A stretch of DNA of 36,053 nucleotides. It comes from Candidatus Methylomirabilota bacterium. Lineage in GTDB: Bacteria > Methylomirabilota > Methylomirabilia > Rokubacteriales > CSP1-6. The notes beneath the pieces are model-generated. The model saw only the letters and a program-made list of their open reading frames with translations. It had not been told where the DNA came from and searched no databases. The DNA lies in NCBI GenBank assembly GCA_035709005.1, contig DASTFB010000056.1:1-36053 (forward strand). The letters run 5' to 3'. Each line of letters begins with the position of its first letter. Position 1 is the first letter of the stretch. Position numbers and translations under genes: made by a program. This document shows positions 30,700-34,539 of this stretch, one piece after another.

Positions 30700-30710
30700 C
30701 GCCGGCGGCT

Positions 30711-30834
30711 CGGGGTGGGCGGGGGCTCCGGAAACCCGTTTCCCTGCGACTGTCCTCGCCGTGCCTGTCGATGGACCCGCGGAACGCGACCGCCGCCTCC
30801 GCGCTCGTGGTTTCCGGAGCCCCCGCCCACCCCG
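30711..30834. mobile_element. 124-bp segment with perfect 26-bp terminal inverted repeats (invertible segment or MITE)
   Basis: Positions 30711-30736 (CGGGGTGGGCGGGGGC...) and 30809-30834 (...GCCCCCGCCCACCCCG) are exact reverse complements over 26 bp, enclosing 72 bp. A 12-bp direct repeat GCGCCGGCGGCT flanks it (30699-30710 and 30837-30848), like a target-site duplication. No coding capacity. The inner segment carries an ATG (30771, plus strand) that would be in frame with the cyclotransferase after inversion. Confidence 0.75.
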
Positions 30835-30854
30835 CGGCGCCGGCGGCTGACGGT

Positions 30855-31514
30855 TCAGGGTGTGGCGTCGCTCGCGGAAGCCTGAAGCACCGCGCCCAGG
30901 AATTCTGCCTCGGGCAGCGCCCCTTCGAACTCCACGCGATCGTTGATGACGACCTTGGGCACCGCCATCACCTGATAGGCCCGGCTGAGGTCGGGGAATT
31001 CCGTGGCCTCGATGGCAGTCGAGCGCACGCGCTCCGAGGCGACGGCCATGTGCTGGGCCAGGCGGACCGCCCGGGGGCAGTGAGGTCAGGTGGGCGTCGA
31101 GAAGACCTTGATGTCGACGTCCCGGTCCAGACCGGCCAGCGCCGTCTTCGTGGCCTCGGCCAGCGCCGGCTCACCCGTCGACGCCACGATGATGGCGTCG
31201 ATCAGATTGCCGAACTCGTAGCCGAGGGGCACGCCGTAGAAGCGGATACCGTAATCCCGGGCTCCCTCCACGACGATGGCCGGCACCCGGTCGATACCGT
31301 AACTGGCGGCACGCTCGCGGTCGATGGCCAGGTTCAAGACCTCCATCGTGATCTTGTCGCTGAGGGCCGCCACCTCGCGCACGAGCTGCTCGTTCTGGGC
31401 ACACAGCTCGGCGGCGGCGAGCGACTGCGAGAAGACGGTCAGCTTGACCGGATCCCGGAGCGCCCCGAGCGCTTTGCGAACCTCGGCTTCGTTCTGCGGC
31501 GTGAGGATGGCCAT
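30855..31514 (-). CDS. Two-thioredoxin-domain protein disulfide oxidoreductase, probable selenoprotein (Sec143)
   Basis: Predicted 219 residues when the in-frame TGA at 31088-31086 is read as selenocysteine. The protein has two thioredoxin/glutaredoxin folds as in archaeal and bacterial PDO. Domain 1 (1-115) has lost its CxxC (FSQSLAAAELC) but keeps VPAIVV and FYGVPLGYEF. Domain 2 continues straight through the TGA: VFSTPT-U-PHCPRAVRLAQHMAV, with the second Cys retained and the cis-Pro loop VMAVPKVVIND further on. The TGA takes the place of the first Cys of the CPHC redox motif. Sequence on both sides is conserved-looking and in one frame, which speaks against a pseudogene. The start is ATG 31514, six bases after a perfect TATAAT that overlaps the stop of the upstream gene. 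Nonsense mutation is the alternative. Confidence 0.82.
31053..31088 (-). promoter_or_regulatory. Candidate bacterial SECIS element at the UGA codon
   Basis: After the UGA (31088-31086) the RNA can fold CCGGGC (31074-31069) with GCCUGG (31063-31058) around the loop GGUCC, and below an internal loop CUG (31080-31078) with CAG (31055-31053). The apical loop starts 17 nt after the UGA and has G in its first two positions, as bacterial SECIS elements require. The folding was drawn by hand. Confidence 0.55.
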
Positions 31515-31520
31515 GGCCAG

Positions 31521-31526
31521 ATTATA
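31521..31526 (-). promoter_or_regulatory. Perfect -10 element for the disulfide oxidoreductase gene
   Basis: Minus strand TATAAT, then CTGGCC, then ATG 31514. The hexamer contains the TAA stop of the upstream TPP-like gene. The spacing predicts a leaderless transcript starting at the ATG, so this gene can be expressed apart from the operon. Confidence 0.55.
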
Positions 31527-32994
31527 CCGGCGAACCGCGTGCCGGTCGGGCCCGGACGCGGATCACCGTGGGTCCCCGGCCGGCCAGGGCGCGGTGCAGG
31601 GCCCGCGTGAGCTGCTCCTCGTCGCCCGCCGTCACATCGGGCACGGCGGCCTCGGTCGGCGGTGTTTCGGCCCCGCCGACGCCCAGGTCGATGAGCACCA
31701 CGGGCAGTTGGTGCCGGCCGGCGGTGGCGATGGCGTCCGGCGCCGCAGCCAGGCCCGCCGCGTCGCTGAAGGCGACGGCGTGGCCGCCCGCTCGCGCCAG
31801 TGACGCCGCCACGGCGGCGGCCGGCGCGAACGACTGCCCGGAGTCGCCGGCGCCCACCAGCAGCTCGTTCGGTCCGACGGCCTGCCACCGGGCCGTGACG
31901 ACCGCGGCGCCGGGTCCTTCGTCGACCGTCGCGACGGTGCCGGCCGGTGTGAGCGCTCTCACCATGTCCACGGCTCGCGATGGCGAGAGCTGCCCGGCCG
32001 AGGTTGCGACCCGGCGCGCGCGTTTGAGGCGATCGAGCTCGGCGACATCCCAGTCGGCGCGGGCCTGCCCGCGAACTCGTGGCGCCAGCTCTTCGATGAT
32101 GAGAGCGAGGTCGCCGGACACCGAGAGCACACCGGCCCGACCGGCGCCGCCATCCGTGGGCCCGCCGAGCGCGAGCCGGGGCAGCCCCGCCGGCCAGCTG
32201 ATCGCGGTCTCCTCCAGCGGGTCGAGCCCGGCGGTGACGATCAGATCGGCCCGCGCCAGCACGGTCCCGCCCTCGTCGAGCAGCCCGAGCACGAGCGGAT
32301 GAGGATCGGGCAGGACGCCTTTGCCTCTGAGGGTGACGAGCACCGGCATGGGCAGGGCCTCGGCCAGCGCGCGTAGCCACGGCCCGGCCTGGCCCGACCG
32401 GCACCCGAGCCCCACGACGAGCAGGGGTCGCGCCGCCGCCGTGAGAAGCGCGGCAGCTTCATCGAGCACCGCCGGCGCGGGCGGCACGCCGGGCGCGACG
32501 ACCGCCGGGCGCTCCCCCACCCCGGTGGCCGGGGCGGCGGCGACGTGCGGCGACAGCGCGAGATGCACCGGCCCGCGTGGAGCCTCGATCGTCAGGTCGA
32601 GCGCGCTCATCAGGGCGCTGGCGGCCGACTCGCTCGTCGGCTGCAGCGCGGCCTTGAGGTGCGGCGTGAGGACGCTCGAATCGAGGGGGCCCGCGGAGAT
32701 CACGAGCAGGGACGCGCGGGCCGTCGCGGCGTACCTGACCCCGACGACGGCGGCTGGAGCGTCGGCGGGTGACAGAAGCACCACCCCCGTGGCGGGCCCG
32801 AGGTCGCCGGTCACCGCCGCCATCACCGCCGCAGCGGCCGGTGCCTCCGTCTCGACGAGGGCGAGCCCTCGCGCTCGAGCGGAGGCGTCGAACGGCCCGA
32901 GGGAGGATGCACCGCCTGCCGTGAAGAGCCGGGTCGCACCCGACGCGACGAGGACGTCAGCGACGACGTCGGCAACACGCCGACTTCGGGTCAA
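31522..32994 (-). CDS. Thiamine-diphosphate-enzyme-like protein (acetolactate-synthase fold) with degenerate cofactor motif
   Basis: A 490-residue protein with the three-domain layout of acetolactate synthase-like enzymes: N-terminal Pyr domain (VADVVADVLVASGATRLFTAGG, with the activating Glu in LVETEAPAAAAVMAA), a central domain (LLVVGLGCRSGQAGPWLRAL), and a C-terminal PP domain. In the PP domain the expected GDG-x(~25)-NN cofactor signature is replaced by FSDAAGLAAAPDAIATAGRH and LIDLGVG, so Mg2+-diphosphate binding is doubtful. It is about 60-100 residues shorter than typical acetolactate synthases. The TTG start at 32994 overlaps the aminotransferase stop (TTGA), indicating coupling. It may be a decarboxylase with altered cofactor use or a non-catalytic relative; I cannot name a substrate. 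Confidence 0.72.
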   Translation of the reverse strand: MTRSRRVADVVADVLVASGATRLFTAGGASSLGPFDASARARGLALVETEAPAAAAVMAAVTGDLGPATGVVLLSPADAPAAVVGVRYAATARASLLVISAGPLDSSVLTPHLKAALQPTSESAASALMSALDLTIEAPRGPVHLALSPHVAAAPATGVGERPAVVAPGVPPAPAVLDEAAALLTAAARPLLVVGLGCRSGQAGPWLRALAEALPMPVLVTLRGKGVLPDPHPLVLGLLDEGGTVLARADLIVTAGLDPLEETAISWPAGLPRLALGGPTDGGAGRAGVLSVSGDLALIIEELAPRVRGQARADWDVAELDRLKRARRVATSAGQLSPSRAVDMVRALTPAGTVATVDEGPGAAVVTARWQAVGPNELLVGAGDSGQSFAPAAAVAASLARAGGHAVAFSDAAGLAAAPDAIATAGRHQLPVVLIDLGVGGAETPPTEAAVPDVTAGDEEQLTRALHRALAGRGPTVIRVRARPARGSPV

Positions 32995-34160
32995 CCGGCG
33001 AGGCGCTCGAAGATCGGCCGCATCCGCTCCAGCGCGGTGCGCAGGTTGGCCTCGGAGTTGGCGTAGGACAGGCGCAGGTACCCCTCGCCGTACTGGCCGA
33101 AAGCCGTCCCCGCCAGTACGGCGACACCCGCCTCGTTCAACAACCGGTCGGCGACCTCTGCGGACGAGCGGCGGGTGCCCGTGATATTGGGGAAGACGTA
33201 GAAGGCCCCACGGGGGCGCGCACACTTCACGCCGGGCAGGCGGTTCAGGCCGTCCACCACCAGGTCGCGGCGCCGCTTGAACTCCGCGACCATGCGGGCC
33301 GTCGGCGTCTGGTCGCCCTGCAGGGCGGCGATGCCGGCCAGCTGTACGAACGAGGACGTGCAGGAGTTCGAGTTCACCATCAGCCTGGTCACGTGCTCGG
33401 CGAGCGGCACCGGCATCACCCCGTAACCCAGGCGCCACCCCGTCATGGCATACGACTTGGAGAACCCGTCGAGCAGGACGGTGAGCTCGCGCATGCCGGG
33501 CATGCCCATGATCGACACGAACTCGCCCTCGTAGAGGAACTGCCGGTAGATCTCGTCGGCGAGCACGGGGATGCCGCGGGCGGCGGCCAGCGCCGCGATG
33601 CGCTCGATCTGGCTGCGATCGAGCACCCCGCCCGTGGGGTTCTCCGGCGAGTTGATGATGATGAGCCGCGTCCGCGCGGACAGCTTGCGCTCGAAGAGCT
33701 CGAGGTCGAAGCCGAAGCCCGTGTCCTCCCGCAGCGGGATGGGCACGGGCACGCCGCCCGCGAAGTTGATGACCGACTCGTAGATGGGAAACCCCGGGTT
33801 GGGATAGATGACCTCGTCGCCGGCGCCGGCCAGGGCCAGGATGGTGAAGAACATGATGGGCTTGGCCCCGGGCGTCACCACCACCTCGTCCGGCGAGACC
33901 GGCACGCCCCGCGTCTCGGCCACGTGCTTGGCGATGGCTTCCCGGAGCTCGGGCAGCCCGGCCGAGGGCCCGTAGTGCGTCGCGCCCGCGTCCAGGGCTT
34001 GCTTGGCGGCTTCCTTGACGTGGGCGGGGGTATCGAAGTCGGGCTCGCCGATCTCGAGGTGAATGATCGACTTGCCCTGGCGCTCCAGGGCCTTGGCGCG
34101 GGCCAGGACCTCGAACGCCGATTCCGTGCCGAGTCGGCTCATGCGCTGGGCGAAGTTCAT
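32991..34160 (-). CDS. Class I PLP-dependent aminotransferase (aspartate aminotransferase I-gamma type)
   Basis: A 389-residue fold-type I aminotransferase. Visible are IHLEIGEPDFDTP, THYGPSAGLPELREAI, INSPENPTGGVLDR with the conserved Asn and Pro, VLADEIYRQF with the PLP-ring Asp, DGFSKSYAMTGWRLGY with Lys235 as Schiff-base residue, and the C-terminal carboxylate-binding Arg in LRLSYANSEAN. The family transfers amino groups among aspartate, alanine, aromatic amino acids and 2-oxo acids; substrate not fixed by sequence. ATG 34160 is chosen because a perfect TATAAT lies six bases upstream, which makes the upstream GTG (34184) part of the promoter. First gene of the minus-strand run down to 28418. 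Confidence 0.92.
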   Translation of the reverse strand: MNFAQRMSRLGTESAFEVLARAKALERQGKSIIHLEIGEPDFDTPAHVKEAAKQALDAGATHYGPSAGLPELREAIAKHVAETRGVPVSPDEVVVTPGAKPIMFFTILALAGAGDEVIYPNPGFPIYESVINFAGGVPVPIPLREDTGFGFDLELFERKLSARTRLIIINSPENPTGGVLDRSQIERIAALAAARGIPVLADEIYRQFLYEGEFVSIMGMPGMRELTVLLDGFSKSYAMTGWRLGYGVMPVPLAEHVTRLMVNSNSCTSSFVQLAGIAALQGDQTPTARMVAEFKRRRDLVVDGLNRLPGVKCARPRGAFYVFPNITGTRRSSAEVADRLLNEAGVAVLAGTAFGQYGEGYLRLSYANSEANLRTALERMRPIFERLAG

Positions 34161-34166
34161 GCCGGG

Positions 34167-34172
34167 ATTATA
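34167..34172 (-). promoter_or_regulatory. Perfect -10 element for the class I aminotransferase operon
   Basis: Minus strand TATAAT, then CCCGGC, then ATG 34160, predicting a leaderless mRNA. Eight bases upstream is a 10-bp palindrome TTCACGTGAA (34180-34189), a possible operator. Confidence 0.55.
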
Positions 34173-34539
34173 GGGTATCTTCACGTGAACAGTGGACGTA
34201 CCGGCGCCAGCCGCTGGTGGGAACTGACCGGCGGGCCGGCCGTCCAGCGCGCAGCCTGCGAGTCCCTCAAAGCCGATGCCTGGGCAACCTTATCCGCCAG
34301 CCGCGCGCCGATCCTCCGATCGAGTACCGCGCCCCCTGGCGGTGCGGGCCAGACACGACACGCGCTCATATGATCGCGTCGCCCCGCCGACACTTGGCAG
34401 ACACTTCCGGCCAGCCTGGCAATCTGCCGAGCGTGGCCGCCCGGCGCGGCCTGGCTCAAACACGCAGATCTTCATCTCTCCGATCCGCGCTTCCCGTCCA
34501 ACGGTCCTGGCATCGCGTTCGCACCATCGTTCTGCGTTC
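34173..34539. other. Intergenic region between divergent aminotransferase and glycosyltransferase genes
   Basis: About 367 bp. Apart from the palindrome TTCACGTGAA at 34180-34189 I see no gene, repeat or clear promoter. The glycosyltransferase frame is open back to 34228 and an ATG at 34369 exists, but the translation in this part (Pro/Arg/Ser-rich) does not look native. Confidence 0.5.

What the first reader, a model, noticed from the sequence alone, without database searches (positions are those of the whole stretch)
30855..31514. Probable new selenoprotein: two-domain disulfide oxidoreductase with UGA in place of the first active-site cysteine
Seen: one continuous minus-strand reading frame is interrupted only by a TGA at 31088-31086. 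Before it the protein reads VFSTPT, after it PHCPRAVRLAQHMAV and then a full thioredoxin second half with its cis-Pro loop. The TGA replaces precisely the first Cys of CPHC. A hairpin with loop GGUCC starts 17 nt after the UGA, within the range known for bacterial SECIS elements, and has G in the first loop positions. Known: Sec/Cys exchange in redox motifs is the classic sign of selenoproteins. Inferred: domain 1 has lost its redox motif, so activity would rest wholly on the Sec site. Gene finders would split this into two pieces.
Basis: partly seen in the sequence, partly recalled or inferred. Interest (0 to 1): 0.82.

Follow-up and report, generated by a model that had tools for sequence, protein, structure and literature searches.

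The report
Known-family redox selenoprotein in a Rokubacterium
This gene uses an internal "stop" codon to insert selenocysteine into the active site of a thioredoxin-like enzyme; the evidence for that is very strong, but selenocysteine forms of this family (the AhpF N-terminal-domain homologues) have been known since at least 2006, so it is a sound annotation rather than a new kind of thing.

Summary
On the minus strand, 31514-30855 is one conserved gene with an in-frame TGA at 31088-31086, exactly at the first Cys of the second CxxC of a two-domain protein disulfide oxidoreductase (PDO; NCBIfam TIGR02187, 255.9 bits; best solved relative 1A8L, the CPYC position). The own genome has tRNA-Sec (TCA), selA, selB and a selD that itself carries an in-frame TGA. 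Across 95 genomes of the phylum, 51 of 52 homologues carry one in-frame TGA; every TGA-bearing homologue aligned residue by residue has it at this column. Archaeal and Chloroflexi homologues have Cys there; one MAG has AGA. dN/dS is about 0.1-0.35 against most relatives on both sides of the TGA. A hairpin starting 12 nt after the UGA (5-nt loop at 18-22) meets the published bSECIS model, and its six codons form the least synonymously variable window of the gene. The reading as a selenoprotein is therefore supported. [quoted passage not shown] The Rokubacterial members are a clade-wide addition in which domain 1 has mostly lost its CxxC. Interest is low to modest.

The parts
30855..31514 (-). 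Selenoprotein gene: two-domain protein disulfide oxidoreductase (219 aa with Sec143), ATG 31514, terminal TGA 30857-30855
   Evidence: TIGR02187, 255.9 bits, cut-off 185; 1A8L, E 8.7e-43; dN/dS mostly 0.1-0.35 on both sides of the TGA
31086..31088 (-). Sec codon TGA in place of the first Cys of the domain-2 CPHC motif (UPHC)
   Evidence: 51 of 52 phylum homologues have one in-frame TGA, at this column in every aligned TGA-bearing one; Cys in L033-L035; P. furiosus PDO has TPTCPYC here
31058..31074 (-). Putative bSECIS hairpin: 6-bp stem CCGGGC/GCCUGG, loop GGUCC (31068-31064), loop 17 nt after the UGA
   Evidence: Lowest synonymous diversity of all 6-codon windows of the gene, 11 of 20000 permutations; fits the bSECIS model quoted
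31077..31079 (-). Resolving Cys146 codon (TGC) of UxxC
   Evidence: Invariant Cys in all aligned homologues
31401..31403 (-). Remaining Cys38 of the degenerate domain-1 motif (AxLC instead of CxxC)
   Evidence: Aligns with the second Cys of CQYC in 1A8L; absent in some relatives such as L031, L060, L062-L064

Best explanation
The gene encodes a two-thioredoxin-fold protein disulfide oxidoreductase of the PDO / AhpF-N-terminal-domain family, with selenocysteine as the attacking residue of the second active site (U143-P-H-C146). The UGA is decoded by tRNA-Sec, SelB and the hairpin 12-28 nt downstream (machinery genes and hairpin shown; decoding inferred). By analogy with PDO and AhpF, Sec143 would attack a substrate disulfide, Cys146 would resolve it through a selenenylsulfide, and a thioredoxin-reductase-type flavoenzyme would re-reduce it (inferred; a TrxB-family gene is in the genome). 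Domain 1 would be mostly structural, as in AhpF, since its CxxC is reduced to one Cys. The family is already known to have Sec members.
For: Family model and solved homologues. Machinery: tRNA-Sec, selB, selA, selD with its own TGA. Conservation of the TGA. Cys homologues. Purifying selection on both sides of the TGA. Hairpin with exceptional synonymous constraint; published bSECIS criteria. Conserved neighbourhood (TPP enzyme - PDO - GGACT) in many relatives. TrxB homologue. Prior art.
Against: L032 has AGA at the Sec codon with the hairpin intact. Three MAGs with the TGA gene (G031, G032, G021) showed no selA, selB or tRNA-Sec, though all have a TGA-containing selD. tRNA-Sec lies close to selA where both were found, and selA next to selB in G008, so one missing contig would explain this, but G031 is rated 100% complete. 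The hairpin is not the MFE of longer segments and shows little true covariation, because it is nearly invariant. No protein-level data.
Confidence: 0.95

Rival explanations
1. The TGA is a real stop: the gene is a pseudogene or is split into two ORFs (or the TGA is a sequencing error for TGC/TGT).
For: Standard gene callers would end the ORF at 31086 (ORF list).
Against: The TGA recurs in 51 of 52 homologues from independent MAGs of the phylum; downstream dN/dS is as low as upstream; the machinery is present.
Confidence: 0.02
2. UGA is read through by another route (near-cognate suppression or code reassignment), giving Trp, Arg or another residue.
For: One relative, L032, has an Arg codon (AGA) here.
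Against: The gene and many relatives end with TGA, so UGA is not reassigned; distant homologues have Cys; tRNA-Sec and SelB are present; the synonymous constraint sits at the bSECIS position.
Confidence: 0.02
3. The gene is on the opposite strand (ORF 30771-31610 +).
For: That antisense frame is open here and in 28 of 33 relatives.
Against: An antisense frame aligned to the codons is almost always open in GC-rich genes, because TTA, CTA and TCA codons are rare; variation follows the sense third positions; the sense protein matches TIGR02187 at 255.9 bits.
Confidence: 0.01

Closest known systems
[quoted passage not shown] Carboxydothermus, Symbiobacterium, some Asgard archaea)
   Same: Same family model, same UxxC motif
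   Different: Another lineage (Rokubacteria/Methylomirabilota); I did not align it directly with the type sequence
Pyrococcus furiosus protein disulfide oxidoreductase (PDB 1A8L) and related PDO-like proteins (2YWM/2AYT)
   Same: Two tandem thioredoxin folds over the whole length; second-domain motif TPTCPYC aligns with TPTUPHC
   Different: Cys instead of Sec in domain 2; complete CQYC in domain 1, here reduced to one Cys
N-terminal domain of alkyl hydroperoxide reductase AhpF (1HYU, 4O5Q)
   Same: Two thioredoxin folds, one active site in the second fold
   Different: Free-standing here, not fused to a flavoprotein; Sec in the active site

Membership tests
TIGR02187 protein disulfide oxidoreductase (PDO_seleno_TRX) | Full-length match above the curated cut-off | tested here: met
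   255.9 bits against 185, model positions 3-209 of 209
TIGR02187 protein disulfide oxidoreductase (PDO_seleno_TRX) | Two thioredoxin-fold domains | tested here: met
   phmmer alignment over residues 17-212 with 1A8L, E 8.7e-43; no structure prediction was run
Archaeal-type PDO (both active sites) | CxxC in domain 1 as well as in domain 2 | tested here: not met
   A35-E-L-C38; also degenerate in nearly all Rokubacterial relatives, complete in L037 (CPTC). Not required of the AhpF-type members
Bacterial selenoproteins | In-frame TGA aligned with a catalytic Cys of homologues | tested here: met
Bacterial selenoproteins | TGA conserved in relatives | tested here: met
   51 of 52 homologues in the phylum
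Bacterial selenoproteins | Sec machinery (tRNA-Sec, SelA, SelB, SelD) in the genome | tested here: met
Bacterial selenoproteins | bSECIS: 3-9 nt loop, 4-16 bp stem, G in the first two loop positions, 16-37 nt spacing, MFE at or below -7.5 | tested here: met
   Loop of 5, 6 bp, GGUCC, 17 nt, -11.2 kcal/mol for the local hairpin (criteria)
Bacterial selenoproteins | Selenium in the protein | not testable with these tools
   Needs 75Se labelling or mass spectrometry

The most novel reading that the evidence does not exclude
Rokubacteria carry a clade-wide sublineage of PDO selenoproteins in which loss of the domain-1 CxxC left catalysis to one Sec-Cys site, kept in a conserved neighbourhood with a TPP-dependent enzyme, often an aminotransferase, and a GGACT-type gene, hinting at a dedicated partner or substrate.
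Probability: 0.35. Interest if true: 0.35.

Novelty: new member of a known kind. Interest (0 to 1): 0.2.

Why it matters
The gene is likely to be cut in two by automatic annotation. It shows that Sec use in this redox family is nearly fixed across a branch of an uncultivated phylum, with a bSECIS visible as strong synonymous constraint. It gives a clean reference case for annotation, not a new principle.

Tried and rejected
Rfam scan of 30700-31700 gave nothing above cut-off. Free-energy folding of 66 nt was uninformative. RNAalifold on ten sequences recovered the hairpin, but with hardly any covariation in it because it is nearly invariant. Pseudogene, code-reassignment and antisense readings were considered and rejected. 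A search for papers naming Rokubacteria together with selenocysteine found two hits that I judged incidental from title and abstract and did not read. A protein search of plasmid records gave only distant matches, below 60% identity throughout and below 30% in the listed rows.

Full report
What is there. The minus-strand frame 31514-30855 reads as 219 residues with one internal TGA at 31088-31086 (residue 143) and a terminal TGA. With Cys at 143 the protein matches NCBIfam TIGR02187, PDO_seleno_TRX, over the full model at 255.9 bits against a cut-off of 185, and Thioredoxin_3 in the second half. The best solved relatives are the PDO 1A8L (Pyrococcus furiosus, from general knowledge; E 8.7e-43), PDO-like 2YWM/2AYT and AhpF. 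In 1A8L the aligned stretch is FVTPTCPYCPLAVRMA, so the TGA sits exactly at the first Cys of the second active site.

Is the TGA sense? The own genome (4.59 Mb, 95% complete) has a tRNA-Sec above the Rfam cut-off with anticodon TCA, selB at 361 bits, selA at 596 bits and selD at 336 bits; selD has its own in-frame TGA in the Cys/Sec loop. Of 15 relatives found among named genomes, 12 are Candidatus Rokubacteria MAGs and three are distant homologues. In 95 genomes of the phylum, 52 have a strong homologue and 51 of these have one in-frame TGA. In all TGA-bearing homologues that I aligned residue by residue it is at this same column. Bathyarchaeota, Thaumarchaeota and Chloroflexi homologues have Cys there. 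Against nine relatives dN/dS is about 0.1-0.25 downstream of the TGA for eight of them (0.33 for the most distant, L031) and 0.14-0.35 upstream (0.56 for L031), so the downstream half is under at least as strong protein-level selection as the upstream half.

SECIS. Positions 12-28 after the UGA form a 6-bp stem with loop GGUCC. In 33 distinct TGA-bearing sequences, codons +4 to +9 (mostly CCC CGG GCC GTG CGC CTG) are nearly frozen at synonymous sites: mean synonymous diversity 0.14 of expectation, against 0.91 for the gene. This is the lowest of 212 six-codon windows, reached in 11 of 20000 column permutations. Codon +10, just outside, varies freely. The mean local folding energy over all sequences (-9.8) lies far below that of synonymous recodings (-6.6, sd 0.4), though for the window sequence alone the difference is marginal (5% of recodings fold as well). 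Most relatives have loop CGUGC and two distinct sequences (the window's and L028) have GGUCC; L028 swaps the G-U pair for A-U, and the outlier L037 forms a shifted hairpin. The element meets the published constraints of loop size, stem length, G in the first two loop positions, 16-37 nt spacing and energy (PMC13188914). In longer segments other folds win; I give weight to the comparative signal, not to the free energy.

Exceptions. L032 has AGA at the Sec codon, and the only TGA-free homologue in the phylum search is in G085. I take these to be the same gene; that was not proved. L032 is near a contig end and 92.6% identical at the DNA level to L064, which has TGA. G085 is a 78%-complete MAG in which selB was not found and tRNA-Sec only below cut-off, while its selD copies keep TGA. 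Recent decay and an assembly error are both possible. G031, G032 and G021 have the TGA gene and a TGA-containing selD but no selA, selB or tRNA-Sec was found; since tRNA-Sec is close to selA and selA next to selB in G008, a gap in the MAG is the likeliest cause.

Function. The two-fold anatomy, the UxxC site and the families point to a thiol-disulfide oxidoreductase. Domain 1 has A-E-L-C38 in place of CxxC; several relatives have no Cys there, and L037 has CPTC. So catalysis probably rests on Sec143/Cys146. A TrxB-family reductase is in the genome; that it is the electron donor is inferred. The gene begins 7 nt after the stop of the TPP-enzyme ORF, and TPP enzyme, PDO and GGACT genes are neighbours in many relatives; whether this is functional is unknown.

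Novelty. Sec-containing members of this family are in the literature: "homolog of AhpF, amino-terminal domain" in 2006 (PMC1794560), and "TIGR02187, UxxC, ABB15282.1" in the 2022 and 2026 reviews (PMC9312934; PMC13188914). Asgard examples were reported in 2024 (PMC11227280). The 2026 review also cites a Methylomirabilota MAG with 63 predicted selenoproteins, so Sec use in what I take to be this phylum (Rokubacteria are placed in Methylomirabilota, from general knowledge) is not new either. The present gene is a well-supported new member.

Noticed in passing
window 30700-30845: A 37-nt inverted repeat (95% complementary, 72-nt spacer) between the PDO gene and the GGACT gene; arms found nowhere else in the genome; as RNA it folds at -114.7 kcal/mol, z -6.3. 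L025 has a 31-nt inverted repeat with a 67-nt spacer in the same intergenic position but of unrelated-looking sequence; of eight other relatives' stretches none of that length was found.
   Followed up: partly
G000:C87:189561-190505 (L017): selD of the same genome is itself a selenoprotein gene (in-frame TGA in the Cys/Sec loop); in-frame TGA also in selD of all 8 relatives checked.
   Followed up: partly
L032 148-780; G085: The Sec codon is AGA instead of TGA in one Rokubacterial MAG, with the downstream hairpin intact: a possible early step of Sec loss, or an error.
   Followed up: partly
window 31606-31672 (-): Sub-threshold Rfam match to Hammerhead_II (23.2 bits, cut-off 37, E 0.044) inside the TPP-enzyme coding region; probably chance.
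   Followed up: no
window 31522-34184 (-): The TPP-dependent enzyme upstream of the PDO gene is much less conserved (about 37-48% identity) than the PDO (57-83%) and the aminotransferase (73-88%) in most Rokubacterial relatives, although it stays in the same neighbourhood.
   Followed up: no
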